Below, in pieces: positions 9,268-64,000 of a DNA stretch of 64,000 nucleotides; the first letter of the stretch is position 1, and each line of letters opens with the position of its first letter. The stretch comes from Siphonodentalium dalli (lineage: Eukaryota > Mollusca > Scaphopoda > Gadilida > Siphonodentaliidae): positions 130,417,917 to 130,481,916 of the forward strand of contig CP136066.1 of the NCBI GenBank assembly GCA_032622095.1, given 5' to 3'. The position numbers and the translations under genes were made by a program. The notes under the pieces were generated by a model. It was not told where the DNA came from and searched no databases. It saw only the letters and a list, made by a program, of their open reading frames with translations.

Positions 9268-12200
9268 ACATAGAAACACACCACCCCCACCCATCACCCC
9301 CGGGGGTGCCACCCCGAGGGGGTGGAAATGGGGTATGGACCATTTTCGAGAACAGTAAGGATTTCGACAGATTTGACGGCATGGGTGGGTGGCCCGCCCC
9401 AAATACCACCTAGAAACACCCCACACCCACCCATCACCCCCCGGGGGTGCCACCCCGAGGGGGTGAAAATGGGGTATGGACCATTTTCGAGAACGGTAAG
9501 GATTTCGACCGATTTGACGGCATGGGTGGGTGGCCCGCCCCAAATACCACCTAGAAACACCCCACCGCCCACCCATCACCCCCGGGGGGGTGCCACCCCG
9601 AGGGGGTGAAAATGGGGTATGGACCATTTTCGAGAACGGTAAGGATTTCGACCGATTTGACGGCATGGGTGGGTGGCCCGCCCAAATACCACATAGAAAC
9701 ACCCCCACCCCACCCATCACCCCCGGGGGGTGCCACCCCGAGGGGGTGAAAATGGGGTATGGACCAGTTTCGAGAACGGAAAGGATTTCGACCGATTTGA
9801 CGGCATGGGTGGGTGGCCCGCCCCAAATACCACCTAGAAACACCCCCACCCCCACCCTTCACCCCCGGGGGGTGCCACCCAGAGGGGGTGAAAATGGGGT
9901 ATGGACCATTTTCGAGAACGGTAAGGATTTCGACCGATTTGACGGCATGAGTGGGTGGCCCGCCCCAAATACCACCTAGAAACACCCCCATCACCCCCGG
10001 GGGGTGCCACCCCGAGGGGGTGAAAATGGGGTATGGACCATTTTCGAGAACGGTAAGGATTTCGACCGATTTGACGGCATCCATGGGTGGGTGGCCCGCC
10101 CCAAATACCACCTAGAAACACCCCCACCCCCCACCCATCACCCCCGGGGGGTGCCACCCCGAGGGGGTGAAAATGGGGTATGGACCATTTTCGAGAACGG
10201 TAAGGATTTCGACCGATTTGACGGCATGGGTGGGTGGCCCGCCCCAAATACCACCTAGAAACACCCCCACCCATCACCCCGGGGGGTGCCACCCCGAGGG
10301 GGTGGAAATGGGGTATGGACCATTTTCGAGAACGGTAAGGATTTCGACAGATTTGACGGCATGGGTGGGTGGCCCGCCCCAAATACCACCTAGAAACACA
10401 CCACCATCACCCCCGGGGGTGCCACCCCGAGGGGGTGAAAATGGGGTATGGACCATTTTCGAGAACGGTAAGGATTTCGACCGATTTGACGGCATGGGTG
10501 GGTGGCCCGCCCCAAATACCACCTAGAAACACCCCACCCATCACCCCGGGGGTGCCACCCCGAGGGGGGTGAAAATGGGGTATGGACCATTTTCGAGAAC
10601 GGTAAGGATTTCGACCGATTTGACGGCGATGGGTGGGTGGCCCGCCCAAATACCACATAGAAACACCCCCACCCCACCCATCACCCCCGGGGGGTGCCAC
10701 CCCGAGGGGGTGAAAATGGGGTATGGACCAGTTTCGAGAACGGTAAGGATTTCGACCGATTTGACGGCATGGGTGGGTGGCCCGCCCCAAATACCACCTA
10801 GAAACACCCCCACCCTTCACCCCCGGGGGGTGCCACCCCGAGGGGGTGAAAATGGGGTATGGACCATTTTCGAGAACGGTAAGGATTTCGACCGATTTGA
10901 CGGCATGAGTGGGTGGCCCGCCCCAAATACCACCTAGAAACACCCCCATCACCCCCGGGGGGTGCCACCCCGAGGGGGTGAACATGGGGTATGGACCATT
11001 TTCGAGAACGGTAAGGATTTCGACCGATTTGACGGCATCCATGGGTGGGTGGCCCCGCCCCAAATACCACCTAGAAACACCCCCACCCCCACCCATCACC
11101 CCGGGGGGTGCCACCCCGAGGGGGTGCCACCCCCGAGGGGGTGAAAATGGGGTATGGACCATTTTCGAGAACGGTAAGGATTTCGACCGATTTGACGGCA
11201 TGGGTGGGTGGCCCGCCCCAAATACCACCTAGAAACACCCCCACCCATCACCCCGGGGGGTGCCACCCCGAGGGGGTGGAAATGGGGTATGGACCATTTT
11301 CGAGAACGGTAAGGATTTCGACAGATTTGACGGCATGGGTGGGTGGCCCGCCCCAAATACCACCTAGAAACACCCCATCACCCCGGGGGGGTGCCACCCC
11401 GAGGGGGTGAAAATGGGGTATGGACCATTTTCGAGAACGGTAAGGATTTTCGACCGATTTGACGGCATGGGTGGGTGGCCGCCCAAATACCACATAGAAA
11501 CACCCCCACCCCACCCATCACCCCCGGGGGTGCCACCCCGAGGGGTGAAAATGGGGTATGGACCATTTTCGAGAACGGTAAGGATATCGACCGATTTGAC
11601 GGCATGGGTGGGTGGCCCGCCCCAAATACCACATAGAAACACCCCCACCCCCACCCTTCACCCCCGGGGGGTGCCACCCCGAGGGGGGTGAAAATGGGGT
11701 ATGGACCATTTTCGAGAACGGTAAGGATTTCGACCGATTTGACGGCATGGGTGGGTGGCCCGCCCCAAATACCACCAAGAAACACCCCCACCCTTCACCC
11801 CCGGGGGGTGCCACCCCGAGGGGGTGAAAATGGGGTATGGACCATTTTCGAGAACGGTAAGGATTTCGACCGATTTGACGGCATGAGTGGGTGGCCCGCC
11901 CAAATACCACCTAGAAACACCCCCATCACCCCCGGGGGGTGCCACCCCGAGGGGGTGAAAATGGGGTATGGACCATTTTCGAGAACGGTAAGGATTTCGA
12001 CCGATTTGACGGCATCCATGGGTGGGTGGCCCGCCCCAAATACCACCTAGAAACACCCCCACCCCCCACCCATCACCCCCCGGGGGGTGCCACCCCGAGG
12101 GGGTGAAAATGGGGTATGGACCATTTCGAGAACGGTAAGGATTTCGACCGATTTGACGGCATGGGTGGGTGGCCCGCCCCAAATACCACCTAGAAACACC

Positions 12201-13439
12201 CCCCACCCATCACCCCGGGGGGTGCCACCCCGATGGGGTGGAAATGGGGTATGGACCAATTTTCGAGAACGGTAAGGATTTCGACAGATTTGACGGCATG
12301 GGTGGGTGGCCCGCCCCAAATACCACCTAGAAACACACCACCCCCACCCATCACCCCCGGGGGTGCCACCCCGAGGGGGGTGAAAATGGGGTATGGACCA
12401 TTTTCGAGAACGGTAAGGATTTCGACCGATTTGACGGCATGGGTGGGTGGCCCGCCCCAAATACCACCTAGAAACACCCCACCCATCACCCCCGGGGGGT
12501 GCCACCCCGAGGGGTGTGAAAATGGGGTATGGACCATTTTCGAGAACGGTAAGGATTTCGACCGATTTGACGGCATGGGTGGGTGGCCCGCCCAGGTGGC
12601 CCGCCCAAATACCACATAGAAACACCCCCACCCCACCCATCACCCCCGGGGGTGCCACCCCGAGGGGGTGAAAATGGGGTATGGACCAGTTTCGAGAACT
12701 GTAAGGATTTCGACCGATTTGACGGCATGGGTGGGTGGCCCGCCCCAAATACCACCTAGAAACACCCCCACCCCCACCCTTCACCCCCGGGGGGTGCCAC
12801 CCCGAGGGGGTGAAAATGGGGTATGGACCATTTTCGAGAACGGTAAGGATTTCGACCGATTTGACGGCATGAGTGGGTGGCCCGCCCCAAATACCACCTA
12901 GAAACACCCCCATCACCCCCGGGGGTGCCACCCCGAGGGGGTGAAAATGGGGTATGGACCATTTTCGAGAACGGTAAGGATTTCGACCGATTTGACGGCA
13001 TCCATGGGTGGGTGGCCCGCCCCAAATACCACCTAGAAACACCCCCACCCCCACCCATCACCCCCGGGGGGTGCCACCCCGAGGGGGTGAAAATGGGGTA
13101 TGGACCATTTTCGAGTACGGTAAGGATTTCGACCGATTTGACGGCATGGGTGGGTGGCCCGCCCCAAATACCACCTAGAAACACCCCCACCCATCACCCC
13201 GGGGGGTGCCACCCCGAGGGGGTGGAAATGGGGTATGGACCATTTTCGAGAACGGTAAGGATTTCGACAGATTTGACGGCATGGGTGGGTGGCCCGCCCC
13301 AAATACCACCTAGAAACACACCACCCCCACCCATCACCCCCGGGGGTGCCACCCCGAGGGGGTGAAAATGGGGTATGGACCATTTTCGAGAACGGTAAGG
13401 ATTTCGACCGATTTGACGGCATGGGTGGGTGGCCCGCCC

Positions 13440-13490
13440 CAAATACCACCTAGAAACACCCCACCCCCACCCATTTTCGAGAACGGTAAG
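13440..13490 (+). repeat. unequal-exchange scar between monomers
   Basis: A class-4 monomer jumps from its C-rich tail straight into ttttcgagaacgg of the next monomer (around 13472). The gccacc...gtatgg part is missing. Classes 2-4 then repeat. The motif ccat is present on both sides of the jump, which suggests a short-homology join. Confidence 0.7.
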
Positions 13491-15212
13491 GATTTCGACC
13501 GATTTGACGGCATGGGTGGGTGGCCCGCCCCAAATACCACCTAGAAACACCCCCACCCATCACCCCGGGGGGTGCCACCCCGAGGGGGTGGAAATGGGGT
13601 ATGGACCATTTTCGAGAACGGTAAGGATTTCGACAGATTTGACGGCATGGGTGGGTGGCCCGCCCCAAATACCACCTAGAAACACACCACCCCCACCCAT
13701 CACCCCCGGGGGTGCCACCCCGAGGGGGTGAAAATGGGGTATGGACCATTTTCGAGAACGGTAAGGATTTCGACCGATTTGACGGCATGGGTGGGTGGCC
13801 CGCCCCAAATACCACCTAGAAACACCCCACCCATCACCCCGGGGGTGCCACCCCGAGGGGGTGAAAATGGGGTATGGACCATTTTCGAGAACGGTAAGGA
13901 TTTCGACCGATTTGACGGCATGGGTGGGTGGCCCGCCCAAATACCGCATAGAAACACCCCCACCCCACCCATCACCCCCGGGGGGTGCCACCCCGAGGGG
14001 GTGAAAATGGGGTATGGACCAGTTTCGAGAACGGTAAGGATTTCGACCGATTTGACGGCATGGGTGGGTGGCCCGCCCCAAATACCACATAGAAACACCC
14101 CCACCCTTCACCCCCGGGGGGTGCCACCCCGAGGGGGTGAAAATGGGGTATGGACCATTTTCGAGAACGGTAAGGATTTCGACCGATTTGACGGCATGAG
14201 TGGGTGGCCCGCCCCAAATACCACCTAAGAAACACCCCCATCACCCCCGGGGGGTGCCACCCCGAGGGGGTGAACATGGGGTATGGACCATTTTCGAGAA
14301 CGGTAAGGATTTCGACCGATTTGACGGCATCCATGGGTGGGTGGCCCGCCCCAAATACCACCTAGAAACACCCCCACCCCCACCCATCACCCCCGGGGGG
14401 TGCCACCCCGAGGGGGTGAAAATGGGGTATGGACCATTTTCGAGAACGGTAAGGATTTCGACCGATTTGACGGCATGGGTGGGTGGCCCGCCCCAAATAC
14501 CACCTAGAAACACCCCCACCCATCACCCCGGGGGGTGCCACCCCGAGGGGGTGGAAATGGGGTATGGACCATTTTCGAGAACGGTAAGGATTTCGACAGA
14601 TTTGACGGCATGGGTGGGTGGCCCGCCCCAAATACCACCTAGAAACACCCCATCACCCCGGGGGGTGCCACCCCGAGGGGGTGAAAATGGGGTATGGACC
14701 ATTTTCGAGAACGGTAAGGATTTCGACCGATTTGACGGCATGGGTGGGTGGCCCGCCCAAATACCACATAGAAACACCCCCACCCCACCCATCACCCCCG
14801 GGGGTGCCACCCCGAGGGGTGAAAATGGGGTATGGACCATTTTCGAGAACGGTAAGGATATCGACCGATTTGACGGCATGGGTGGGTGGCCCGCCCCAAA
14901 TACCACATAGAAACACCCCCACCCCCACCCTTCACCCCCGGGGGGTGCCACCCCGAGGGGGTGAAAATGGGGTATGGACCATTTTCGAGAACGGTAAGGA
15001 TTTCGACCGATTTGACGGCATGGGTGGGTGGCCCGCCCCAAATACCACCAAGAAACACCCCCACCCTTCACCCCCGGGGGGTGCCACCCCGAGGGGGTGA
15101 AAATGGGGTATGGACCATTTTCGAGAACGGTAAGGATTTCGGCCGATTTGACGGCATGAGTGGGTGGCCCGCCCCAAATACCACCTAGAAACACCCCCAT
15201 CACCCCCGGGGG

Positions 15213-15352
15213 TGCCACCCCGAGGGGGTGAAAATGGGGTATGGACCATTTTCGAGAACGGTAAGGATTTCGACCAATTTGACGGCATCCATGGGTGGGT
15301 GGCCCGCCCCAAATACCACCTAGAACCACCCCCACCCATCACCCCCGGGGGG
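15213..15352 (+). repeat. HOR monomer class 1 (catccatgg class)
   Basis: 140 bp. It is recognised by an extra catc before the catgggtgggtgg segment (gcatccatgggtgg at 15285). This copy also has cgaccaattt in place of cgaccgattt. Confidence 0.85.
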
Positions 15353-15486
15353 TGCCACCCGAGGGGGTGAAAATGGGGTATGGACCATTTTCGAGAACGG
15401 TAAGGATTTCGACCGATTTGACGGCATGGGTGGGTGGCCCGCCCCAAATACCACCTAGAAACACCCCCACCCATCACCCCGGGGGG
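15353..15486 (+). repeat. HOR monomer class 2
   Basis: 134 bp. In several sister copies this class carries cgagtacgg instead of cgagaacgg (13114, 16355, 18427). It ends with acacccccacccatc. Confidence 0.75.
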
Positions 15487-15626
15487 TGCCACCCCGATGG
15501 GGTGGAAATGGGGTATGGACCATTTTCGAGAACGGTAAGGATTTCGACAGATTTGACGGCATGGGTGGGTGGCCCGCCACAAATACCACCTAGAAACACA
15601 CCACCCCCACCCATCACCCCCGGGGG
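15487..15626 (+). repeat. HOR monomer class 3 (ggaaatgg / cgacag class)
   Basis: 140 bp. It carries ggaaatgg in place of gaaaatgg, cgacagattt in place of cgaccgattt, and an acacaccaccccc tail. The first change breaks the gaaaatgg/ccattttc dyad present in the other classes. Confidence 0.85.
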
Positions 15627-15760
15627 TGCCACCCCGAGGGGGTGAAAATGGGGTATGGACCATTTTCGAGAACGGTAAGGATTTCGACCGATTTGACGGC
15701 ATGGGTGGGTGGCCCGCCCCAAATACCACCTAGAAACACCCCACCCATCACCCCGGGGGG
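15627..15760 (+). repeat. HOR monomer class 4
   Basis: 134 bp. It has the consensus core with a short acaccccaccc tail after acctagaaac. Confidence 0.75.
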
Positions 15761-15899
15761 TGCCACCCCGAGGGGGTGAAAATGGGGTATGGACCATTTT
15801 CGAGAACGGTAAGAATTTCGACCGATTTGACGGCATGGGTGGGTGGCCCGCCCAAATACCACATAGAAACACCCCCACCCCACCCATCACCCCCGGGGG
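15761..15899 (+). repeat. HOR monomer class 5 (cccgcccaaatac / acatag class)
   Basis: 139 bp. It is marked by cccgcccaaatacc, shorter than cccgccccaaatacc by one C, and by acatagaaac in place of acctagaaac. Confidence 0.85.
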
Positions 15900-16035
15900 T
15901 GCCACCCCGAGGGGGTGAAAATGGGGTATGGACCAGTTTCGAGAACTGTAAGGATTTCGACCGATTTGACGGCATGGGTGGGTGGCCCGCCCCAAATACC
16001 ACCTAGAAACACCCCCACCCTTCACCCCCGGGGGG
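15900..16035 (+). repeat. HOR monomer class 6 (ccagtttcg class)
   Basis: 136 bp. It is marked by ggaccagtttcgag in place of ggaccattttcgag and a cacccttcaccc tail. Confidence 0.85.
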
Positions 16036-16166
16036 TGCCACCCCGAGGGGGTGAAAATGGGGTATGGACCATTTTCGAGAACGGTAAGGATTTCGACCGA
16101 TTTGACGGCATGAGTGGGTGGCCCGCCCCAAATACCACCTAGAAACACCCCCATCACCCCCGGGGG
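16036..16166 (+). repeat. HOR monomer class 7 (catgagtgg class)
   Basis: 131 bp, the shortest class. It is marked by gcatgagtgggtgg and an abbreviated acacccccatcaccc tail. Confidence 0.85.
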
Positions 16167-16238
16167 TGCCACCCCGAGGGGGTGAAAATGGGGTATGGAC
16201 CATTTTCGAGAACGGTAAGGATTTCGACCGATTTGACG

Positions 16239-19200
16239 GCATCCATGGGTGGGTGGCCCGCCCCAAATACCACCTAGAAACACCCCCACCCCCCACCCAT
16301 CACCCCCGGGGGGTGCCACCCCGAGGGGGTGAAAATGGGGTATGGACCATTTTCGAGTACGGTAAGGATTTCGACCGATTTGACGGCATGGGTGGGTGGC
16401 CCGCCCCAAATACCACCTAGAAACACCCCCACCCATCACCCCGGGGGGTGCCACCCCGAGGGGGTGGAAATGGGGTATGGACCATTTTCGAGAACGGTAA
16501 GGATTTCGACAGATTTGACGGCATGGGTGGGTGGCCCGCCCCAAATACCACCTAGAAACACACCACCCCCACCCATCACCCCCGGGGGTGCCACCCCGAG
16601 GGGGTGAAAATGGGGTATGGACCATTTTCGAGAACGGTAAGGATTTCGACCGATTTGACGGCATGGGTGGGTGGCCCGCCCCAAATACCACCTAGAAACA
16701 CCCCACCCCCACCCATCACCCCGGGGGTGCCACCCCGAGGGGGTGAAAATGGGGTATGGACCATTTTCGAGAACGGTAAGGATTTCGACCGATTTGACGG
16801 CATGGGTGGGTGGCCCGCCCAAATACCACATAGAAACACCCCCACCCCACCCATCACCCCCGGGGGTGCCACCCCGAGGGGTGAAAATGGGGTATGGACC
16901 ATTTTCGAGAACGGTAAGGATTTCGACCGATTTGACGGCATGGGTGGGTGGCCCGCCCCAAATACCACATAGAAACACCCCCACCCCCACCCTTCACCCC
17001 CGGGGGGTGCCACCCGAGGGGTGAAAATGGGGTATGGACCATTTTCGAGAACGGTAAGGATTTCGACCGATTTGACGGCATGGGTGGGTGGCCCGCCCAA
17101 ATACCACCTAGAAACACCCCCATCACCCCCGGGGGGTGCCACCCCGAGGGGGTGAAAATGGGGTATGGTCCATTTTCGAGAACGGTAAGGATTTCGACCG
17201 ATTTGACGGCATCCATGGGTGGGTGGCCCGCCCCAAATACCACCTAGAAACACCCCCACCCCCCACCCATCACCCCCGGGGGGTGCCAACCCGAGGGGGT
17301 GAAAATGGGGTATGGACCATTTTCGAGAACGGTAAGGATTTCGACCGATTTGACGGCATGGGTGGGTGGCCCGCCCAAATACCACCTAGAAACACCCCCA
17401 CCCATCACCCCCGGGGGGTGCCACCCCGAGGGGGTGAAAATGGGGTATGGACCATTTTCGAGAACGGTAAGGATTTCGACCGATTTGACGGCATGGGTGG
17501 GTGGCCCGCCCCAAATACCACCTAGAAACACCCCACCCCCCACCCATCACCCCGGGGGGTGCCACCCGAGGGGGTGAAAATGGGGTATGGACCATTTTCG
17601 AGAACGGTAAGGATTTCGACCGATTTGACGGCATGGGTGGGTGGCCCGCCCAAATACCACATAGAAACACCCCCACCCCACCCATCACCCCCGGGGGGTG
17701 CCAACCCGAGGGGGTGAAAATGGGGTATGGACCATTTACGAGAACGGTAAGGATTTCGACCGATTTGACGGCATGGGTGGGTGGCCCGCCCCAAATACCA
17801 CATAGAAACACCCCACCCCCACCCTTCACCCCCGGGGGGTGCCACTCCGAGGGGGTGAAAATGGGGTGTGGACCATTTTCGAGAACGGTAAGGATTTCGA
17901 CCGATTTGACGGCATGGGTGGGTGGCCGGCCCCAAATACCACCTAGAAACACCCCCATCACCCCCGGGGGTGCCACCCCGAGGGGGTGAAAATGGGGTAT
18001 GGACCATTTTCGAGAACTGTAAGGATTTCGACCGATTTGACGGCATGGGTGGGTGGCCCGCCCCAAATACCACCTAGAAACACCCCCCACCCTTCACCCC
18101 CGGGGGGTGCCACCCCGAGGGGGTGAAAATGGGGTATGGACCATTTTCGAGAACGGTAAGGATTTCGACCGATTTGACGGCATGAGTGGGTGGCCCGCCC
18201 CAAATACCACCTAGAAACACCCCCATCACCCCCGGGGGTGCCACCCCGAGGGGGTGAAAATGGGGTATGGACCATTTTCGAGAACGGTAAGGATTTCGAC
18301 CGATTTGACGGCATCCATGGGTGGGTGGCCCGCCCCAAATACCACCTAGAAACACCCCCACCCCCCACCCATCACCCCCGGGGGGTGCCACCCCGAGGGG
18401 GTGAAAATGGGGTATGGACCATTTTCGAGTACGGTAAGGATTTCGACCGATTTGACGGCATGGGTGGGTGGCCCGCCCCAAATACCACCTAGAAACACCC
18501 CCACCCATCACCCCGGGGGGTGCCACCCCGAGGGGGTGGAAATGGGGTATGGACCATTTTCGAGAACGGTAAGTATTTCGACAGATTTGACGGCATGGGT
18601 GGGTGGCCCGCCCCAAATACCACCTAGAAACACACCACCCCCACCCATCACCCCCGGGGGTGCCACCCCGAGGGGGTGAAAATGGGGTATGGACCATTTT
18701 CGAGAACGGTAAGGATTTCGACCGATTTGACGGCATGGGTGGGTGGCCCGCCCCAAATACCACCTAGAAACACCCCACCCCCACCCATCACCCCGGGGGT
18801 GCCACCCCGAGGGGGTGAAAATGGGGTATGGACCATTTTCGAGAACGGTAAGGATTTCGACCGATTTGACGGCATGGGTGGGTGGCCCGCCCAAATACCA
18901 CATAGAAACACCCCCACCCCACCCATCACCCCCGGGGGTGCCACCCCGAGGGGTGAAAATGGGGTATGGACCATTTTCGAGAACGGTAAGGATTTCGACC
19001 GATTTGACGGCATGGGTGGGTGGCCCGCCCCAAATACCACATAGAAACACCCCCACCCCCACCCTTCACCCCCGGGGGGTGCCACCCGAGGGGGTGAAAA
19101 TGGGGTATGGACCATTTTCGAGAACGGTAAGGATTTCGACCGATTTGACGGCATGGGTGGGTGGCCCGCCCAAATACCACCTAGAAACACCCCCATCACC

Positions 19201-20250
19201 CCCGGGGGGTGCCACCCCGAGGGGGTGAAAATGGGGTATGGACCATTTTCGAGAACGGTAAGGATTTCGACCGATTTGACGGCATCCATGGGTGGGTGGC
19301 CCGCCCCAAATACCACCTAGAAACACCCCCACCCCCCACCCATCACCCCCGGGGGGTGCCAACCCGAGGGGGTGAAAATGGGGTATGGACCATTTTCGAG
19401 AACGGTAAGGATTTCGACCGATTTGACGGCATGGGTGGGTGGCCCGCCCAAATACCACCTAGAAACACCCCCACCCATCACCCCCGGGGGGTGCCACCCC
19501 GAGGGGGTGGAAATGGGGTATGGACCATTTTCGAGAACGGTAAGGATTTCGACAGATTTGACGGCATGGGTGGGTGGCCCGTCCCAAATACCACCTAGAA
19601 ACACCCACCCCCACCCATCACCCCCGGGGGTGCCACCCCGAGGGGGTGAAAATGGGGTATGGACCATTTTCGAGAACGGTAAGGATTTCGACCGATTTGA
19701 CGGCATGGGTGGGTGGCCCGCCCCAAATACCACCTAGAAACACCCCACCCCCCACCCATCACCCCGGGGGGTGCCACCCCGAGGGGGTGAAAATGGGGTA
19801 TGGACCATTTTCGAGAACGGTAAGGATTTCGACCGATTTGACGGCATGGGTGGGTGGCCCGCCCAAATACCACATAGAAACACCCCCACCCCACCCATCA
19901 CCCCCGGGGGGTGCCAACCCGAGGGGGTGAAAATGGGGTATGGACCATTTACGAGAACGGTAAGGATTTCGACCGATTTGACGGCATGGGTGGGTGGCCC
20001 GCCCCAAATACCACATAGAAACACCCCACCCCCACCCTTCACCCCCGGGGGGTGCCACTCCGAGGGGGTGAAAATGGGGTGTGGACCATTTTCGAGAACG
20101 GTAAGGATTTCGACCGATTTGACGGCATGGGTGGGTGGCCGGCCCCAAATACCACCTAGAAACACCCCCATCACCCCCGGGGGTGCCACCCCGAGGGGGG
20201 TGAAAATGGGGTATGGACCATTTTCGAGAACGGTAAGGATTTCGACCGAT
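16239..20250 (+). repeat. ~2.1-2.2-kb tandem duplication within array 1
   Basis: Rare variants recur in the same order. The catccatgg landmark at 16239 and 17209 is repeated at 18311 and 19282 (about 2072 bp apart). The gccaaccc variants at 17285 and 17700 are repeated at 19368 and 19913. The gccactccg variant at 17841 is repeated at 20053 (2212 bp). The offset grows by one monomer inside the second copy. Confidence 0.8.
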
Positions 20251-30950: not shown

Positions 30951-31050
30951 NNNNNNNNNNNNNNNNNNNNNNNNNNNNNNNNNNNNNNNNNNNNNNNNNN
31001 NNNNNNNNNNNNNNNNNNNNNNNNNNNNNNNNNNNNNNNNNNNNNNNNNN
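30951..31050. other. assembly gap of 100 N
   Basis: Exactly 100 N in the middle of the satellite. The round number suggests a gap of unknown size, so the true array length is not known from this sequence. Confidence 0.99.
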
Positions 31051-31339
31051 CGCCCCAAATACCACCTAGAAACACCCCCCACCCCCACCCATCACCCCCG
31101 GGGGGTGCCACCCCGAGGGGGTGAAAATGGGGTATGGACCATTTTCGAGAACGGTAAGGATTTCGACCGATTTGACGGCATGGGTGGGTGCCCGCCCCAA
31201 ATACCACCTAGAAACACCCCCACCCATCACCCCCGGGGGGTGCCACCCCGAGGGGGTGGAAATGGGGTATGGACCATTTTCGAGAACGGTAAGAATTTCG
31301 ACAGATTTGACGGCATGGGTGGGTGGCCCGCCCCAAATA

Positions 31340-45000: not shown

Positions 45001-45600
45001 GATTTGACGGCATGGGTGGGTGGCCCGCCCCAAATACCACATAGAAACACCCCCACCCTTCACCCCCGGGGTGCCACCCCGAGGGGGGTGAAAATGGGGT
45101 ATGGACCATTTTCGAGAACGGTAAGGATTTCGACCGATTTGACGGCATGGGTGGGTGGCCCGCCCCAAATACCACATAGAAACACCCGACACCCCCACCC
45201 TTCACCCCCGGGGGGTGCCACACCGAGGGGGGTGGAAATGGGGTATGGACCATTTTCGAGAACGGTAAGGATTTCGACAGATTTGACGGCATGGGTGGGT
45301 GGCCCGCCCCAAATACCACCTAGGAACACCCCACCCCACCCATCACCCCCGGGGGTGCCACCCCGAGGGGGTGAAAATGGGGTATGGACCATTTTCGAGA
45401 ACGGTAAGGATTTCGACCGATTTGACGGCATGGGTGGGTGGCCCGCCCCAAATACCACATAAAAACACCCCACCCCCATCCTTCACCCCCGGGGGGGTGC
45501 CACCCCGAGGGGGTGAAAATGGGGTATGGACCATTTTCGAGAACGGTAAGGATTTCGACCGATTTGACGGCATGGGTGGGTGGCCCGCCCCAAATACCAC
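42050..45600 (+). repeat. 1.78-kb tandem duplication within array 1
   Basis: Paired rare variants occur at a fixed offset: ggtataaatgggg near 42082 and 43862, the deleted monomer catcaccgaggggtg near 42199 and 43977, gcccgcaccaaatacc near 42282 and 44068, cacccagaaagggtg near 43023 and 44813, and aaacacccgacaccc near 43400 and 45180. Offsets are 1780-1790 bp. Confidence 0.8.
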
Positions 45601-53674: not shown

Positions 53675-56458
53675 GGAATATCAACGGCGTCATTGACACA
53701 TTTTGGGCCATCGGAATATCTCGCTGACAATTCTATCTGATTTAGCGCACCGAGAAGCCCCTAAATACCAAATTTCAGTTCGATAACTTGAAACATGTAA
53801 GAGAAATCCATCGACAATGTTTCCTACTGTAAAGTCTCATTGCAATTTGGCGAACCCCTTGAGGAACATGGTTTGATTGACGTATGTTCACGTTGTCTAC
53901 ATCATAGTTCCTCGGTTGTTTGGCGTCAAACCAAGTGTACGGTGGACCAGGGCATGCCCGACTTGATAGGAATCGCCCTGTATGCGACCAAAATCTGTTT
54001 CCAATTATGATATATGTACGGTGTATTCGTTGACCTCTTAGAGAGTTTGAACTCTAAGTCACGCCCACAAAGTACATCAATTTCCACCACGTATATTCAA
54101 ATGGCTGTATCTCATAGACGTCTCAACGTGCGGAGCTGAGCGATACGTCGTTTGGACGGATACATCATCGGCTACTCCACGGTGTACAATTTGAATATAT
54201 ACTCATAACGATAATTCAACTATTAAAGGGCACAAGTCAACAAAGTGGCTCAATTTTGTTTGGTTTCCATTAATCATGATATTCGAATTAAATACAAGTT
54301 TTGGAGAAAGAGCGAATATGAGGGTATCACCCTCCCTTTTTGGTACGCGGAATTCAGGGTGTTTTGAAGCTGTACGCGGGATTCATACCCCCAAAATAAC
54401 TGGTATTCGGGTTCGAGCAAATCATCTTGAACGCAGGTTTTGATGGCGCAAAATAATATTTTGTGCTAATTATCTGTATGAATGAATGGGTAGAATAGCT
54501 TATTGTGCATATTCGACCACCATGTCATTATAGAGTACCATTAATCATATCATAACGGCCTCATAACGCCCATAACGCGACCGGCACTTCTGCTTGTATC
54601 TGTCTGATATAAAAAACAGACAATTTGCATGTCATTTATCGCATATTATTTCTTAACATGTATTCAGGATTCACCCCCCCCAAAATAAACTGGTATTCAG
54701 GATTCACCCCCACCCCCCCCCCCCCCAAAATTAACTGGTATTCGGGATTCAGGGGGAAGGGGTGATACCATCGAATATGACAATGACGTCGCCCTGAGTC
54801 AACCAAAAAAAACATCATTGGCACAATTTCATGCTGTCATGAACGACCTTGACCTTGCCATATAATTTTGGCAAATGCCATTTGTGTGGTCACCAATATA
54901 TGTGCTACATACTCACAAAAAAGGGCTATATAACCAACTATTTTTGACAATAATTTGCCCATATGTTTGCAATAGGCTGATTCACCCCCCCCCCCAAACG
55001 TGGTCACAAATAAGATAAATCTCCCAGAATCAGAAATTGAATGACAGTAATTTGCCCATTGTCCGGGAGCCAGTAGGGGTACCCTTGCACCCCCTGGGAC
55101 CCCACTCACTTTGTTCCTTATTATGTCCTTAAACTTTTAAGCAATGTTAACAAGAAAAAAAGTGGCCTTTTATATATAGACTCCAGACAGGATGGCGTCC
55201 ATCATGGCCGCCGTTTTTTAGACCAGACCCTAAGTCAGTTTTATGCAAATTATAGCAGGAAAATCTGGTAAAATGTATACAACTGTATGTATTTTCGTGA
55301 AGCTAGGACATAATGACACTTTTTTGGGACAAAATTGAAACTCAACATCCAACATCCAAAATGGCCGCCGAAAGTTGAAAATATGACATTTTTTCACAAA
55401 TATCTTCTAGATCAATTCATGCTGTTTGGAACTGGTTGAGTAATTTGACTTTATTTTGTGTTTTGCATATTAACTGATCATGGGACCAATTACATATGCA
55501 ATTAATGGGGTCCTAGCCCCTTCCGATCCATCAACAATTCGATTTTACAGAACGCGGTACAAAATTTTACAAAAAATCAGAATTGGGATTCTAGTCACAT
55601 TTCAACATGAAGTAAAAAGAACATTGTAATGTAAGTGGGGCATCTCATTACCTATTAATATTCCAACTCTCTGGAACCAAAATGGCTGCGAAAATGGCCG
55701 CCAAAATATGGAAAATGGTAAATATTGCCCAGGGTGTCCTGCAATCGCTTACATGTTGTGGTTGATGTATACAATCGGCTAATCTGTATTCTATGCATTG
55801 CATACCAACATGTCTGATGCACCATGGACCATTTTTACTATTGTCACCATTGACATCACCAGAAATATTGGATTTAGAAATATTGGATTTTTCTCTCACA
55901 AACTTGACATAAATATCGGCAAAAATTCACTTTTCAGGGTTCGATCATTTGTTCAAGTAGAATGCAACTATCTTTGGTATCAAAGGTGTTTATTGTTTTT
56001 GTCTATCTTAAATGTGTCACACTACGGTGTTTATAGACTAAATTGCTCAAGATGGCTTCCAAAATGGCAGCCAAATTTGTAAAAAGTTTAAAGTTAACAT
56101 ATCCCGAACATTATTCTCTGCGTTATCCAAAAAAAAGGTAGCAAGCAAATTGTGACTCACTTGGTTATTGTACGTGTTAGTTAATCAACTGACAACTACG
56201 TTCTATTATGTTTGTCCCAGTTCCGTATGGGGCATGACAAATTCATTTTAAAGTTGTAGTATGGGCTTGCGGAGAACCTCTTTTGTGATTATGGCCATAT
56301 TATTGAAAGGAAATGGGCAGAACTTTGAGACGGAACTGAGATGAACAATGATATGTCAGTACTCTGGCCCATTGTGATAAAAAATTATCAATTGGATACA
56401 GGGTGGAAGCCAAGATGGCAGCCAGGGAGTTACTCTATGATCATAGATGAGGACACTA
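53675..56458. repeat. non-satellite spacer, copy 2
   Basis: Second copy of the 2.8-kb spacer. After ggtatacaggg at 56458 it runs on into unique sequence (agttattgtatgg), whereas copy 1 joins satellite there. This side therefore shows the ancestral right flank. No gene is supported; the short frames across it have no domain. Confidence 0.9.
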
Positions 56459-57160
56459 GGTATACAGGGAGTTATTGTATGGTCATGAATGATGTGTGGG
56501 TATATATGGAGTGCCCTGTTGGAAACGGTGGAACGTATATTTATATATGTTGTGGAAGTGGTATCATTGCTGATATATGGGGAGTAGACGTATTATCATG
56601 GATGGCGTGTATGAGTATGGCAAGTATGGAACTTATGCGTGGTCATATGTGCGGATATTGGTATATCTGGAAGGGCTCACCATTGGTGATGTGCATATAT
56701 ATACCTGCATTGACACTATGGTCATGGGTATGGCGCATATGTATATATGTAGTGGCTGTATGGTCCATTGTGAGGTGAATATGTATACACTGAGTGACTG
56801 TATGGTCGTGAATGTAGTGAATATGTATACATATAGTGACCAGCCCTCTTAATTCAGATTTTTTGGCTTCGGCAATCCGCTACGGCAACAGTATACAGTG
56901 GCCCAGTTTGCTTCAGCAATGCTGATTGCCGTAGCCAATTATGAAGGCTGAGTGACTATATGGTCATGTGTCGGGTATTGGTGTGTACCTGGTGTTCATG
57001 CATGGTGACTCGTGGCTGTATCGTCATTTGTGGTATGTACGGGTATAACCAAGTACGACCAGGTGTACGTGTATAAACTGGGTGACTATGTTGTCATTTG
57101 TGTGGTGCTTATGTACATATGGAGTGACTGGGGTAATGTGTGGGTTCCACAATAATTCAA
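56459..57160 (+). repeat. degenerate minisatellite, forward orientation
   Basis: Loosely repeated words of the type gagtgactgtatggtcatg followed by gaatatgtatacac, at irregular spacing. Clear examples lie near 56466, 56708, 56752, 56791, 56950, 57010 and 57080. Small overlapping open frames here are by-products of the repeat. Confidence 0.65.
56841..56949. mobile_element. small inverted-repeat element (MITE-like), ~109 bp
   Basis: The ends match as imperfect inverted repeats: cagccctcttaatt on the left and aattatgaaggctg on the right. An inner pair is ttggcttcggcaatc / gattgccgtagccaa. The hexamer agtgac lies directly outside both ends and may be a target-site duplication. It is also part of the surrounding minisatellite, so that is not decisive. 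Confidence 0.6.
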
Positions 57161-57300
57161 GGATATGTTAATCAATAGAGAGGTCATGTCAGATAGTTCT
57201 CCATATTGATGGTGTTTATGTAGATGGGGGATGTTAAGCGTGGAAAGCGATAGCCACCCATTATCACACAGTCATTACATATATGCATAGACTTAATAAT
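57161..57300. other. turn-round zone of the minisatellite
   Basis: Unique-looking sequence between the forward and reverse halves of the minisatellite. No hairpin or gene is recognised. Confidence 0.4.
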
Positions 57301-58620
57301 ATAGTGACCCACTGTATACACCTGACCCATGACCACGGATGACAATACAGCCACGCATCACAATACAGGCACACCGGGTATACTCCTAAACATGACCCAT
57401 AACCATATATTCACTCCTTGTATACCCATTCATCTCACCATTGGCCATAAGGTAATCCAACGTATACATATTCTCCAAACACATAATCAAATAGACAATC
57501 AATATATACATCAACAACACAACAATGACCATACGGTCACTCCGGTATACATATGCACCTTACCACTGGCCATATAGCCACTCGCTTCATACACATACCC
57601 TCACCCATGTCACCAGGTATACTCTTTCATCTTACCTATGGTCATATAGTCACCCCGTTCAAAACATTCATACATGATCATGGTCAATCCTTGTATACAT
57701 ATTCATCTCAACATTGGCCATGTCACTCCATGTATCCCTAACTGTCACACCGTAACCGAATAGCCACTCAAGATATACTAATACACCCCAGCCATGTCAG
57801 TATAGTCACTCCATGTATCCATGTGTACCTCATCCATGGACATACGGCCACTCGCTATATACATATATCCCTAGCCCATGACAATAAAGCATCACGTGTG
57901 TACCGTATACTGGTATAACTTAAACATGACCATACCGCCACAAGTCACCAAACAGGAACACCAGGTACATGTATACTCATACGCCTGACACATGACCATT
58001 TAGTCACCCCATGTATAGATGTTCATTACATTTATAATCATACATTCACTACTTGTATACCTACATGTACGCATCTCACCGTTAACCATACAGTCACTGC
58101 CTGTATACATATTCGACACACATACCCATATAACCACTCGATATACATATGCAGCCCACCCAAGACCATAGATTCACTCCAGGTATACATGTAATACTCA
58201 CTAATGGCCATTCAGCCCTTCCAGATATACCCATAAAACCCACACACACGGCCACTCAAACAATCTATATTTGCATATACACCTCACACATGACAATTAA
58301 GCAATTTACTGTATAATCATACACGCCGTCCACGATAAGCTAAGCTGTATACACCCACCAATGATAATACAATTCATGAGATATATAAATATACATCCCA
58401 CCCGTTACCACAAGGATACTCCCTATATACCCACACGCTCGATAATGTCCACCCAGATTACTCCAAAAGTTCAATCATGACCGTACAGTCATTCCATGTA
58501 TACATATACACATTACCCGTAACCATAAAATCACTTCCTATTTATCCACACACCCCATCCATGATCATACAGCCAACATATGTACATCCCACTCACGACC
58601 TTACAGTCACTCCATATATA
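57301..58620 (-). repeat. degenerate minisatellite, reverse orientation
   Basis: The same words as in 56459-57160 occur here as their reverse complement, of the type gaccatacagtcactcc followed by tgtatacatattc. Examples lie near 57526, 57640, 57800, 57985, 58083, 58478 and 58598. Spacing is irregular and often about 55-65 bp. There is no gene. Confidence 0.65.
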
Positions 58621-58622
58621 TG

Positions 58623-58778
58623 AGGATTAACTGTCATGTGGACTGTTTTTATGGATATGTAACCGTGAGGTAAGTGGTTATAACTTGTGTAAAACCCGAA
58701 GGGTTTTAAATACAAGTTATGACCACTTACCTCCCGGTTAAATCTCGATAAAAAACAGTCCACATGACAGTTAATCCT
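58623..58778. mobile_element. fold-back element (MITE-like hairpin), 156 bp
   Basis: The two halves are almost complete reverse complements. The arm aggattaactgtcatgtgg at 58623 pairs with ccacatgacagttaatcct at 58760-58778, the pairing goes on through aggtaagtggt/accacttacct, and the centre is aaaacccgaagggtttt. Few mismatches separate the arms, so it is young or conserved. No target-site duplication is clear in the TA-rich flanks. Confidence 0.8.
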
Positions 58779-60034
58779 TATTTTTATATACATTTAGCGA
58801 AAAGCCACTTTTGTAAATGTATTTAAATCGAAAAGTGTATCGTGACAAAACCAGCCCAAAATATCCCATAGCACCCTTGGCAAAAGTCAACAGGAACAAT
58901 ATCTTTATATTGAAACCTGATGATTTATTAAGTCAATCCCGCGCGAGTCCAAATGCGCCCAAAACATTACGCGTTTTTCTTTCCGAAATCGATGACGCGT
59001 CGATGTAATAATGGGGTTGCAGTTATGAGCTGTTGCGCGTTCACCGAGAAATAATTGCAACTGGTCGATCACGTCTAAAATGATATAAAATGACGATGAT
59101 CGACGATCTGTTTGTCAAACCGTGAATTTATCATTTATTGTGACAAAAAATCGCATTTATACTATTATTATGATCATTTTTTGGAAGGTCGGCGTACGAT
59201 TATCGGCATTTTTTGGAATACCGAATACCTCCTAACAGAGGGGCCGGAATACGGCGTGCCCCATAACAGGGCATGGAATATGGCGTACGAAAAGGGGGTG
59301 GGGGCCTCATATATAGCAACATTTTACGGTCCGTTTTGACGCCATACTGTACCTACGCCCAATTTGTGGCCGGGTATAATGGGCTACCCGGGTACTCTTA
59401 TTGTGGTGATTTGCCCCTATAATAGGGTGTATATGTACGAATTCACTCCAAAATTGGCCATAAATAGGATTGACCCCCCCCCCCCCCCCCCTAGTGTGGC
59501 TATGACGAATTTATCACAAGAGTTGGTCACAAGTGGAGCAGATCTCCCACAATCGGCAATCTAACAATTTCGGGGTTAGTTTTGACTCTACTTGCGCCCA
59601 ATTCGTGGCCTGGTATAATGAGCTACTTGCTGCCGATCCTGGCCAATCCCGCAAATATTTCGAATCGGTGGCTGAAGAAATACTAGCTACAAAAAACAAA
59701 TTAGAATTAGAAACTGGGAACAGGGAACCATAATATTTTAATTGGAGGCTGAATAAGGAACATGGAGCAAGGAACTAAATGCATGGACTTCCCACACACG
59801 AGAACAAAGCCACGTCCCTGGTCACGACAAAATACTCCCTAATCTCAGTCAGACACGGAGTCATCAAGTACATTTCTATTCACAAGAATTACGTCGATCG
59901 TCGAAATTGATACATTGTCTGTGAACGTTGCAATGACGTCAAATACAAGAATCTATTTTTGCTACATCAAAGGACACCGGCCGCCCTTTGATCAGAACTT
60001 GATACCGGCTGCATCAGAATGCATGACCCCAGTG
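58779..60034. other. no gene recognised; contains a duplicated coding-like segment and 18-C tract
   Basis: An 18-base C run lies at 59474-59491. A segment near 59352-59390 is repeated with changes near 59591-59630 (both contain gcccaatt and gtggcc, then tataat). In the second copy a 66-codon frame (59533-59733) reads CAQFVAWYNELL followed by an acidic helix-like stretch. It has no match I recognise and may be a fragment of a mobile element. The rest shows nothing. Confidence 0.35.
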
Positions 60035-60216
60035 GATGTGGGTGTGGTGTTACTATGGGGTATTTGGTGTGAGCGTTTGGGGGGGGGGGGGGGGCGTTCT
60101 ATGTGGTACTTGTGGCGGGCCAGAAGAGACATTTTTGCGGATAAGGAATCAGGAATAAAATGGCTCAAACCCGAGGTATTATCCGGGGTGAGAGGTGATG
60201 CGTTTCTAGGTGGTAT
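60035..60216 (-). repeat. decayed edge of inverted satellite array, with 16-G tract
   Basis: Words such as ggggtatttggtg (60058), tgtggtacttgtggcggg (60101) and gcgtttctaggtggtatt (60201) are worn forms of the minus-strand monomer. A 16-base G run lies at 60079-60094. Divergence is far higher than inside the array. Confidence 0.65.
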
Positions 60217-63200
60217 TTGAGGCCGGCCCCATATTCACCACCTCGGGGTGGCACCCCCGGGGGTGATGGGTGGGGGGGGGGGGTCGGGGTGTTTCTAGGT
60301 GGTATTTGGGGCGGGCCACCCACCCATACCGTCAAATCGGTCAAAATCCTTACCGTTCTCGAAAATGGTCCATACCCCATTTTCACCCCCTCGGGGTGGC
60401 ACCCCCGGGGGTGATGGTGGGGGGTCGGGGTGTTTCTAGGTGGTATTTGGGGCGGGCCACCCACCCATTCCGTCAAATCGGTCGAAATCCTTACCGTTCT
60501 CGAAAATGGTCCATACCCCATTTTCACCCCCTCGGGGTGGCACCCCCGGGGGTGATGGGTGGGGGTCGGGGTGTTTCTAGATGGTATTTGGGGCGGGCCA
60601 CCCACCCATGCCGTCAAATCGGTCGAAATCCTTACCGTTCTCGAAAATGGTCCATACCCCATTTTCACCCCCTCGGGGTGGCACCCCCCGGGGGTGATGG
60701 TGGGGGTCGGGGTGTTTATATGTGGTATTTGGGCGGGCCACCCACCCATGCCGTCAAATCGGTCGAAATCTTTACCGTTCTCGAAAATGGTCCATACCCC
60801 ATTTTCACCCCTCGGGGTGGCACCCCCCGGGGGTGATGGGTGGGGGGTCGGGGTTTTTCTAGGTGGTATTTGGGGCGGGCCACCCACCATGCCGTCAAAT
60901 CGGTCGAAATCTTTACCGTTCTCGAAAATGGTCCATACCCCATTTTCACCCCCTCGGGGTGGCACCCCCGGGGGTGATGGGTGGGGGGTCGGTAGATTCT
61001 AGGTGGTATTTGGGGCGGGCCACCCACCCATGCCGTCAAATCGGTCGAAATCTTTACCGTTCTCGAAAATGGTCCATACCCCATTTTCACCCCCTCGGGG
61101 TGGCACCCCCGGGGGTGATGGGTGGGGGGTCGGGGTGTTTCTAGGTGGTATTTGGGGCGGGCCACCCACCCATGCCGTCAAATCGGTCGAAATCTTTACC
61201 GTTCTCGAAAATGGTCCATACCCCATTTTCACCCCCTCGGGGTGGCACCCCCGGGGGTGATGGGCGGGGGGTCGGTGTGTTTCTAGGTGGTATTTGGGGC
61301 GGGCCACCCACCCATGCCGTCAAATCGGTCGAAATCCTTACCGTTCTCGAAAATGGTCCATACCCCATTTTCACCCCATCGGGGTGGCACCCCCGGGGGT
61401 GATGGGTGGGGGTCGGGGTGTTTCTAGGTGGTATTTGGGGCGGGCCACCCACCCATGCCGTCAAATCGGTCGAAATCTTTACCGTTCTCGAAAATGGTCC
61501 ATACCCCATTTTCACCCCCCTCGGGGTGGCACCCCCGGGGGTGATGGGTGGGGGGTCGGGGTGTTTCTAGGTGGTATTTGGGGCGGGCCACCCACCCATG
61601 CCGTCAAATCGGTCGAAATCTTTACCGTTCTCGAAAATGGTCCATACCCCAGTTTCACCCCCTCGGGGTGGCACCCCCGGGGGTGATGGGTGGGGGTCGG
61701 GGAGATTCTAGGTGGTATTTGGGGCGGGCCACCCACCCATGCCGTCAAATCGGTCGTAATCTTTACCGTTCTCGAAAATGGTCCATACCCCATTTTCACC
61801 CCCTCGCGGTGGCACCCCCCGGGGGTGATGGGTGGGGGGTCGGGGTGTTTCTAGGTGGTATTTGGGGCGGGCCACCCACCCATGCCGTCAAATCGGTCGA
61901 AATCCTTACCGTTCTCGAAAATGGTCCATACCCCACTTTCACCCCCTCGGGGTGGCACCCCCGGGGGTGATGGGTGGGGGTCGGGGAAATTCTAGGTGGT
62001 ATTTGGGGCGGACCACCCACCCATGCCGTCAAATCGGTCGAAATCCTTACCGTTCTCGAAAATGGTCCATACCCCATTTTCACCCCCTCGGGGTGGCACC
62101 CCCCGGGGGTGATGGGTGGGGGTCGGGGTGTTTCTAGGTGGTATTTGGGGCGGGCCACCCACCCATGCCGTCAAATCGGTCGAAATCCTTACCGTTCTCG
62201 AAAATCGTCCATACCCCATTTTCACCCCCTCGGGGTGGCACACCCCGGGGGTGATGGGGTGGGGTGTTTCTAGGTGGTATTTGGGGCGGGCCACCCACCC
62301 ATGCCGTCAAATCGGTCGAAATCCTTACCGTTCTCTAAAATGGTCCATACCCCATTTTCACCCCCTCGGGGGTGATGGGTGGGGGTGTGGGTGTTTCTAG
62401 GTGGTATTAGGGGCGGGCCACCAACCCATGCCGTCAAATCGGTCGAAATCCTTACCGTTCTCGAAAATGGTCCATACCCCATTTTCACCCCCTAGGGGTG
62501 GCACCCCCGGGGGTGACGGGTGGGGGGTGGGGTGTTTCTAGGTGGTATTTGGGGCGGGCCACCCACCCATGCCGTCAAATCGGTCGAAATTCTTACCGTT
62601 CTCGAAAATGGTCCATACCCCATTTTCACCCCCTCGGGGTGGCACCCCCCGGGGTGATGGGTGGGGGTGGGGGTGTTTCTAGATGGTATTTGGGGCGGGC
62701 CACCCACCCATGCCGTCAAATCGGTCGAAATCCTTACCGTTCTCGAAAATGGTCCATACCCCATTTTCACCCCCCTCGGGGTGGCACCCCCGGGGGTGAT
62801 GGTGGGGGGTCGGGGTGTTTCTAGGTGGTATTTGGGGCGGGCCACCCACCCATTCCGTCAAATCGGTCGAAATCCTTACCGTTCTCGAAAATGGTCCATA
62901 CCCCATTTTCACCCCCTCGGGGTGGCACCCCCCGGGGTGATGGGTGGGGGTGGGGGTGTTTCTAGATGGTATTTGGGGCGGGCCACCCACCCATGCCGTC
63001 AAATCGGTCGAAATCCTTACCATTCTCGAAAATGGTCCATACCCCCATTTTCACCCCCTCGGGGTGGCACCCCCGGGGGTGATGGTGGGGGGTCGGGGTG
63101 TTTCTAGGTGGTATTTGGGGCGGGCCACCCACCCATGCCGTCAAATCGGTCGAAATTCTTACCGTTCTCGAAAATGGTCCATACCCCATTTTCACCCCCT

Positions 63201-64000
63201 CGGGGTGGCACCCCCCGGGGTGATGGGTAGGGGTGGGGGTGTTTCTAGATGGTATTTGGGGCGGGCCACCCACCCATGCCGTCAAATCGGTCGAAATCCT
63301 TACCGTTCTCGAAAATGGTCCATACCCCATTTTCACCCCCTCGGGGTGGCACCCCCGGGGGTGATGGTGGGGGGTCGGGGTGTTTCTAGGTGGTATTTGG
63401 GGCGGGCCACCCACCCATTCCGTCAAATCGGTCGAAATCCTTACCGTTCTCGAAAATGGTCCATACCCCATTTTCACCCCCTCGGGGTGGCACCCCCCGG
63501 GGGTGATGGTGGGGGTCGGGGTGTTTATATGTGGTATTTGGGCGGGCCACCCACCCATGCCGTCAAATCGGTCGAGATCTTAACCGTTCTCGAAAATGGT
63601 CCATACCCCATTTTCACCCCTCGGGGTGGCACCCCCCGGGGGTGATGGGTGGGGGGTCGGGGTGTTTATATGTGGTATTTGGGCGGGCCACCCACCCATG
63701 CCGTCAAATCGGTCGAAATCTTTACCGTTCTCGAAAATGGTCCATACCCCATTTTCACCCCCTCGGGGTGGCACCCCCGGGGGTGATGGGTGGGGGGTCG
63801 GGGTGTTTCTAGGTGGTATTTGGGCGGGCCACCCACCCATGCCGTCAAATCGGTCGAAATCTTTACCGTTCTCGAAAATGGTCCATACCCCATTTTCACC
63901 CCCCTCGGGGTGGCACCCCCGGGGGTGATGGGTGGGGGGTCGGGTGTTTCTAGGTGGTATTTGGGGCGGGCCACCCACCCATGCCGTCAAATCGGTCGAA
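60217..64000 (-). repeat. satellite array 3, inverted orientation (~27 monomers, reaches window end)
   Basis: Same family as arrays 1 and 2 but on the minus strand, with monomers of about 141-142 bp. Most have ggtcggggtgtttctaggtg, the complement of an aaacaccccgacccccc tail. That tail is also found in the last monomer before each spacer (47960 and 53655) but is rare inside array 1. The array continues beyond the window. Confidence 0.95.
62660..63400 (-). repeat. dimeric substructure in array 3
   Basis: The tctagatgg variant recurs at about 62677, 62962 and 63245, every second monomer (about 284 bp), alternating with tctaggtgg monomers. A larger duplication also links about 60.46-60.84 kb with about 63.41-63.66 kb: ccattccg at 60465 and 63415, and tttatatgtgg at 60715 and 63524. 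One monomer differs between the two. Confidence 0.65.

What the first reader, a model, noticed from the sequence alone, without database searches (positions are those of the whole stretch)
9268..64000. A 137-bp GC-rich, dyad-containing satellite fills about 45 kb of the window
Three arrays of one family, about 330 monomers in all, form two direct arrays and one inverted array around a non-satellite core. I do not recognise the monomer as a named satellite. Its size, homogeneity and nested structure resemble centromeric or other heterochromatic satellites, but nothing in the sequence proves such a role.
Basis: partly seen in the sequence, partly recalled or inferred. Interest (0 to 1): 0.75.

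Follow-up and report, generated by a model that had tools for sequence, protein, structure and literature searches.

The report
Transposon arms grown into satellite DNA
The 137-bp "satellite" is the repeated part of the mirror-image ends of a jumping element scattered through this genome, and in this one copy those ends have grown into tens of kilobases of ordered repeats; this is a new family of a known but rarely described kind.

Summary
In detail: about 330 monomers (median spacing 139 bp) in three arrays at 9282-47957 (+), 50765-53652 (+) and 60227-64000 (-), about 45 kb in all. The interpretation changes. The monomer is the tandem domain inside the long terminal inverted repeats of a dispersed, apparently non-autonomous, foldback-type DNA transposon. 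A 29-mer of the monomer occurs 6,082 times genome-wide and a terminal tag 845 times. Of 44 neighbouring listed termini within 30 kb, 40 face each other and none are back to back. Of 37 two-ended copies, 23 have exact 8-9 bp target-site duplications, against 0 of 1,332 swapped flanks. The window is one roughly 65-kb copy. Its minus arm ends in the canonical terminus 10.5 kb outside the window, and its core matches another copy at about 91-96%. Its plus arm lost its terminus and grew to about 273 monomers, partly in a 7-monomer higher-order order. Closest precedent: Tetris of Drosophila virilis. No transposase was found, so the superfamily (probably Mutator) is inferred. A centromeric role is unsupported: listed copies are dispersed and the family makes up an estimated 0.06-0.08% of the genome.

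The parts
9268..9281 (.). left edge of the plus arm: the array starts abruptly inside a monomer; the canonical element terminus seen in other copies is missing (truncated left end)
   Evidence: sequence; termini of other copies
9282..47957 (+). plus arm: about 273 monomers of about 139 bp; 7-monomer (about 970 bp) higher-order repeat clearest in the first part; 0 of 259 scored linkers have the GACC motif; contains a 100-N gap
30951..31050 (.). assembly gap (100 N) inside the plus arm
47958..50764 (+). core, first copy of its left 2.8 kb, cut at 50764 where the second plus array begins; its first bases are the core-proximal linker, which does carry GACC
50765..53652 (+). second plus array, 21 monomer hits: the tail of the plus arm duplicated together with the left part of the core (G-run shared at the junction)
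53653..60226 (+). core, full copy (type A): collinear with the core of L031 (element C2:103819959-103830020) at about 91-96% over the larger pieces; longest stop-to-stop frame 149 codons; contains degenerate 42-bp repeats in opposite orientations (about 56.5-57.1 kb versus 57.3-58.6 kb)
60227..64000 (-). minus arm, first 28 monomer hits; continues outside the window with 58 (L017) + 18 (L038) more hits to the canonical terminus at C6:130492371; 64 of 85 scored linkers have GACC

Best explanation
The window holds one overgrown copy (about 65 kb, of which 54.7 kb lies in the window) of an apparently non-autonomous foldback-type DNA transposon. The element consists of a short terminal sequence of about 70-80 bp, a tandem array of 137-142 bp monomers, an optional core, and the same array and terminus in inverted orientation. 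SHOWN: this layout recurs across the genome, usually flanked by 8-9 bp target-site duplications. SHOWN: arm lengths differ widely between copies and between the two arms of one copy. SHOWN: in this copy the plus arm consists of variant monomers, in its first part in an ordered 7-mer pattern, while the minus arm mostly keeps the common form. INFERRED: a transposase made elsewhere recognises the ends and moves the element, with the monomers perhaps serving as repeated binding sites as reported for Galileo. INFERRED: once inserted, unequal exchange or replication slippage within one arm adds and removes blocks of monomers, so that a short arm becomes a satellite array with higher-order repeats. 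The missing left terminus would make this copy immobile (inference).
For: Dispersed: 3,158 + 2,924 exact matches of a 29-mer, control 0. Terminal tag 417 + 428 matches at <=1 mismatch; outermost 24-mer 411 + 448 at <=2 mismatches. Each search lists only 100 places; merged, the two lists give 163 termini, and of 44 adjacent pairs <30 kb apart 40 are +/-, 0 are -/+, 3 --, 1 ++. Target-site duplications: 16 exact 9-bp and 7 exact 8-bp among 37 copies, plus two 8-of-9 and one 7-of-8; 1,332 swapped flanks gave 0 exact and three 7-of-8. In most copies with a terminus the array starts at one phase (position 81 of my consensus) and ends symmetrically. The window's minus arm ends in that terminus and its core is collinear with L031, whose flanks match at 8 of 9 bases. 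Arms evolve separately: GACC linker 0 of 278 scored in the two plus arrays, 64 of 85 in the minus arm, 507 of 692 in the other 85 loci. One variant 27-mer has 26 of its 43 genome copies at this locus. Lag-7 order of one variant: 15 coincidences versus mean 6.4, 0 of 2,000 shuffles as high (lag 7 was chosen after seeing the spacings).
Against: No transposase was found in any copy looked into. Eleven of 37 copies have no recognisable duplication. The window copy itself cannot be tested for a duplication because its left end is gone. Mean identity among plus-arm monomers (0.917) is hardly above that to other loci (median 0.909), so local homogenisation is weak by that measure; the expansion claim rests on variant distribution and order. 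The variant 27-mer also occurs at 17 places elsewhere, so the variants predate or were exchanged beyond this locus. The core-proximal linker of the plus arm has GACC and was not among the scored ones. A 100-N gap and possible assembly collapse or expansion leave the array length uncertain.
Confidence: 0.92

Rival explanations
1. A conventional heterochromatic or centromeric satellite that spread by its own tandem amplification, with transposon-like copies being secondary captures.
For: Long array with a 7-mer higher-order repeat in part; monomers about as similar across loci as within this one; the locus lies at 130.4 Mb of a 233.5-Mb contig; in L007 monomers lie inside a different inverted-repeat unit, and L019/L023/L029, near-identical copies, have one end without the usual terminus.
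Against: Short arrays bounded by one specific terminus, in inverted pairs with target-site duplications, are the common form among the places listed and fetched. 68 listed termini are spread along C1 with no single peak (25-Mb bins). Estimated total is about 1.3-1.8 Mb, 0.06-0.08% of 2.23 Gb, which I would judge low for a main centromere satellite. Only 100 places are listed per search, so an unlisted large block is not excluded.
Confidence: 0.05
2. The foldback element belongs to a superfamily other than Mutator (for example P/Galileo-like or hAT), the foldback form having arisen by convergence.
For: No transposase in hand; Galileo shows that foldback form arises in the P superfamily (PMC3688188 abstract; PMC3169594 passages). 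7 of 23 exact duplications are 8 bp, which I recall as the hAT and P length.
Against: 16 of 23 exact duplications are 9 bp, the usual length in Tm1 and within the 8-10 bp of Tetris, which their authors relate to Mutator. Mutator-type transposase matches exist in this genome (150 scored hits of PF10551), though of 58 on C1-C3 the nearest lies 31.9 kb from a listed terminus.
Confidence: 0.25
3. The large arrays are an assembly artefact (false expansion or mis-join of many short elements).
For: A 100-N gap lies in the plus arm and exact 120-mers recur at offsets such as 2072 and 3242 bp; part of the core and the adjacent array are tandemly duplicated at 99.5%.
Against: Core-arm order is collinear with another copy on another contig; the plus-arm variants are concentrated here rather than sampled from the genome mix; other long arms exist (for example 32 monomer hits in L030).
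Confidence: 0.06

Closest known systems
Tetris / TIR-220, Drosophila virilis foldback transposon and emerging satellite (PMC4079207; abstract and the first part each of Results and Discussion read)
   Same: Non-autonomous; inverted ends with a flanking domain, tandem repeats and inner part; variable non-coding middle; 8-10 bp target-site duplications; tandem repeats amplified in place into satellite-like arrays; 0.08% of the assembled genome; no transposase found.
   Different: Monomer about 220 bp and about 70% AT there, 137-142 bp and about 60% GC here; longest Tetris array 66 copies versus about 273 in one arm here; no higher-order repeat in the parts I read; about 850 tagged termini here versus three structurally complete copies there. 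Sequence relatedness not tested.
Tm1 Mutator/Foldback family of root-knot nematodes (PMC3169594; passages seen)
   Same: Composite inverted ends with variable numbers of tandem units, asymmetric arms, mostly 9-bp target-site duplications, non-autonomous derivatives.
   Different: Tandem unit 13-15 bp; an autonomous copy with a Phantom-like transposase is known; no satellite-sized arrays in the passages seen.
Galileo, Drosophila (PMC3688188; abstract read)
   Same: Foldback-like element whose long inverted ends carry tandem repeats; those repeats hold binding sites of the transposase THAP domain, a possible reason for keeping repeats here.
   Different: Carries a P-superfamily transposase; its target duplication is 7 bp (recalled), unlike 8-9 bp here.
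Helitron-associated satellites of the oyster Crassostrea gigas (PMC8268682; passages seen)
   Same: Short satellite arrays scattered genome-wide because they ride in mobile elements.
   Different: Those elements hold an array between different left and right end boxes; here two inverted arrays lie between inverted termini with target-site duplications.

Membership tests
Foldback-type (FB-like) DNA transposon | long terminal inverted repeats | tested here: met
   40 of 44 adjacent listed termini <30 kb apart converge, 0 diverge; mirror-image arms
Foldback-type (FB-like) DNA transposon | tandem sub-repeats within the inverted repeats, number varying between arms and copies | tested here: met
   plus/minus monomer hits e.g. 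L001 7/28, L003 8/5, L030 32/4, L032 10/10, L021 7/1
Foldback-type (FB-like) DNA transposon | target-site duplication flanking the element | tested here: met
   23 of 37 exact 8-9 bp versus 0 of 1,332 controls; 11 of 37 none
Mutator superfamily | 8-10 bp (mostly 9 bp) target-site duplication | tested here: met
   16 exact 9 bp, 7 exact 8 bp of 37
Mutator superfamily | MULE-type DDE transposase in an autonomous copy with the same ends | tested here: inconclusive
   frames seen in the cores examined are repeats, a LINE piece and short ones incl. a 203-codon frame without Pfam match; 150 scored PF10551 hits in the genome; 58 of them, on C1-C3, were compared with 163 listed termini and the nearest is 31.9 kb away; the remaining hits and termini were not compared
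Tetris (D. virilis) | same tandem-repeat sequence (about 220 bp, about 70% AT) | tested here: not met
   here 137-142 bp and about 60% GC; direct sequence comparison was not possible
Galileo / P superfamily | P-type transposase with THAP domain | not tested
   no P or THAP model was run against the genome; no transposase frame recognised in cores
Centromeric satellite | CENP-A occupancy | not testable with these tools
   needs chromatin profiling
Centromeric satellite | dominant, megabase-scale array concentrated at one site per chromosome | tested here: inconclusive
   6,082 tags in both orientations and 68 termini spread over C1 speak against it, but only the first 100 places are listed per search
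rDNA/IGS or other RNA-gene repeat | Rfam RNA family in or beside the array | tested here: not met
   0 Rfam matches at gathering score in 64 kb; 0 tRNAs by ARAGORN with the bacterial code

The most novel reading that the evidence does not exclude
A single foldback arm can act as a closed satellite nursery: after insertion, one arm alone, independent of its mirror partner, turned minority monomer variants into an array of about 273 monomers with a 7-monomer higher-order repeat, the organisation otherwise regarded as a hallmark of centromeric satellites. If so, higher-order satellites can be seeded anywhere a foldback lands, and this locus catches one in the act.
Probability: 0.4. Interest if true: 0.7.

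Novelty: new member of a known kind. Interest (0 to 1): 0.52.

Why it matters
How new satellite DNAs start is an open question; a transposon whose ends are already tandem repeats supplies both dispersal and a seed array. This genome offers many copies of one family with arms from about one monomer (L021) to about 273 (the window), with higher-order structure in at least one, so the growth of a satellite could be followed copy by copy. It also warns that satellite-looking loci in assemblies may be transposon arms rather than centromeres.

Tried and rejected
Centromere or heterochromatin satellite as primary identity: set aside as above, not excluded for some unlisted block. RNA-gene repeat: nothing found. 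Strong hairpin as the defining feature: not clearly better than shuffles. G-quadruplex motifs: 134 in the plus arm on the complementary strand, but no shuffle control was run, so no claim is made. Strong local homogenisation from mean identity: not seen; a first attempt to show the 7-mer order by mean identity was weak, with a segmentation that found only 214 monomers, and the variant-order test replaced it. Search for an autonomous partner: ORFs in cores and Pfam on three translations gave only an RVT_1 LINE fragment and degenerate zinc-finger repeats, and no match for a 203-aa frame. DNA similarity search of the genome with a 135-bp consensus returned nothing (the tool says very common words are skipped); pattern searches replaced it. 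Text searches listed no paper that I could tie to this family; they search words, not sequence, I opened only four of the listed papers, and the species is not known to me, so absence from print is not shown.

Rows left out of the target-site count: duplicates of counted insertions (L004, L009, L028); loci without two recognised termini (L002, L019, L023, L024, L029, L047/L048); one-sided or terminus-free loci (L007, L010-L013, L015, L016). The 37 pairs came from the places listed, i.e. mostly C1, C2 and part of C3. An earlier count on 31 of them gave 18 exact and 0 of 930 controls; six pairs were added afterwards. The GACC count was redone with one criterion for all loci because one search had used a slightly stricter one for the window arms; the window figures did not change, and the figure for other loci grew with the loci fetched since.
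Full report
OBSERVATION. The three arrays are real and at the stated places: 9282-47957 (+), 50765-53652 (+) and 60227-64000 (-), with 279, 21 and 28 monomer hits, median spacing 139 bp in the first, GC about 60% against about 35-41% in windows free of the array. A 100-N gap lies at 30951-31050.

THE MONOMER IS DISPERSED. The window is C6:130417917-130481916 of a 2.227-Gb assembly in 9 contigs. A 29-mer of the monomer has 3,158 forward and 2,924 reverse exact matches, with 0 for the pattern read backwards. In fetched sequence there are 215 exact 29-mers per 330 monomer hits of the window and 255 per 534 in loci L001-L048; scaling gives roughly 9,300-12,700 monomers, 1.3-1.8 Mb, 0.06-0.08% of the genome (my estimate). 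Variant monomers listed lie on all nine contigs between them.

TERMINI. Most of the fetched small arrays with a terminus start at the same phase of the monomer, preceded by one conserved sequence beginning ACAGACATGACAATTGGAACTTATTCC or ACGAACATGACAWTTGG. A 24-base tag from its inner part occurs 417 + 428 times (<=1 mismatch) and one from its outer part 411 + 448 times (<=2 mismatches). Each call lists 100 places. One search's list alone has 22 neighbours within 30 kb (20 +/-, 1 ++, 1 --); one search's has 35 (33 +/-, 2 --); merged, 163 termini give 44 (40 +/-, 3 --, 1 ++, no -/+). So the arrays are arms of inverted repeats.

TARGET-SITE DUPLICATIONS. Of 37 two-ended copies examined, 16 have exact 9-bp and 7 exact 8-bp duplications, 2 match at 8 of 9, 1 at 7 of 8, and 11 have none; 1,332 swapped-flank controls gave no exact match and three at 7 of 8. 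The family is or was mobile.

KINDS OF COPY. Several copies have no core: the two arrays abut (L005, L006, L022, L032, L059, L062, L065-L067). Type A copies share the window's core (L031, L056, part of it in L030 and in the 27-kb copy below). Type B copies carry an 84-bp array, often inverted, whose translation resembles C2H2 fingers (zf-H2C2_2, E 9.7e-22 for one 240-residue stretch), but only 2 of 127 finger-like units found by my pattern keep all four metal ligands (near-duplicate loci not removed). One copy, C1:152894993-152922402, is about 27 kb, has an exact 9-bp duplication, and has inner arms 99.8% identical over 4,010 bp. No transposase was found in the cores looked at.

THE WINDOW COPY. 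The core is collinear with L031 from W 47958 = L031 1122 to W 60200 = L031 8072, at about 91-96% over the larger pieces, with an insertion in L031. L031 has 8 and 14 monomer hits in its arms; the window copy has about 273 + 21 in the plus arm and 28 + 58 + 18 hits in the minus arm, which ends in the canonical terminus at C6:130492371. The left terminus is missing. The roughly 2.9-kb tail of the plus arm plus 2.8 kb of core is tandemly duplicated (core copies 99.5% identical), with a shared G run at the junction.

LOCAL GROWTH. The linker motif GACC is absent from 259 + 19 scored plus-arm linkers, present in 64 of 85 in the minus arm and in 507 of 692 in the other 85 loci; the unscored linker next to the core in both plus arrays has it. 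A variant 27-mer has 43 exact genome copies, 26 of them in this locus and 17 elsewhere. A second variant, TTTCGACAGATTTGACGGCATGGGTGG, has 122 genome copies; of the 100 listed, 42 lie in the window. Variant monomers recur in the order AB.. Dd FE G. about every 970 bp in the first part of the arm, and less regularly later; lag-7 coincidences of one variant are 15 against a random mean of 6.4, 0 of 2,000 as high, with lag 7 chosen after inspection. Mean identity alone does not separate this locus (0.917 within, median 0.909 to others). Two copies that share flanks and target duplication, L001 and L004, have 7/28 and 10/6 monomer hits, so arms change length after insertion.

MECHANISM. Shown: mobility signature, inverted repeated arms, differing arms, ordered expansion. 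Inferred: transposase supplied in trans; monomers as multiple binding sites, by analogy with Galileo (abstract); growth by unequal exchange or slippage. Superfamily Mutator is likely from the duplication length and from Tetris and Tm1, but not shown.

COMPARISON. Tetris in D. virilis (abstract; first part of Results and of Discussion) is the closest match in structure and in fate; there arrays reach 66 copies. The repeat here differs in length and base composition, the array is larger and part of it is a higher-order repeat. I file it as a foldback-type element, new family as far as I could see; the Mutator membership is left open.

Noticed in passing
window 396-8501: A 213-bp inverted repeat (396-608 versus 8289-8501, 95.8%) with a 10-bp tandem CCGAACACAA end and a further diverged copy at about 2039-2223 surrounds an open 1,632-codon frame (8032-3134, minus) with RVT_1 and Exo_endo_phos matches: an intact-looking LINE inside what may be another inverted-repeat unit.
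   Followed up: partly
G000 C7:18.66-24.45 Mb and C3:55.10-56.37 Mb: Clusters of type A core-related tags: 34 of the 100 listed hits (106 in all) lie in the C7 stretch at about 60-340 kb spacing, mostly minus strand; sample L057 there holds diverged core pieces (about 71-89% to the type A core) and 3 monomer hits. It may be a large tandem segmental amplification carrying one old insertion.
   Followed up: partly
L001, L002, L003, L018, L021, L024 cores: 84-bp tandem repeats, often inverted, that look derived from C2H2 zinc-finger coding sequence; second Cys mostly Tyr and second His mostly Asn (2 of 127 units keep all ligands).
   Followed up: partly
L007 about 380-1770: Monomers lie inside a different inverted-repeat unit built of short AGCTAATTAGC-type repeats, so arrays can be captured by another palindromic element.
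   Followed up: no
L008, L009, L013: In L008 and L009 the outer flanks are the same sequence on both sides of the element, and L013 shares it on the side seen: the element seems to sit inside a larger palindrome present in several copies.
   Followed up: no
L019, L023, L029: Three near-identical copies in which one end has the usual terminus and the other a different outer sequence (TCCAAAATAAATTGG...).
   Followed up: no
L031 about 6091-7671: An insertion in the type A core with ends TTAACACGTTGGGTGCC / GGCACTCAACGTGTTAA, absent from the window core.
   Followed up: no
window 56.5-58.6 kb: Degenerate 42-bp repeats in two opposite orientations within the core: perhaps a foldback nested in the foldback.
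   Followed up: no
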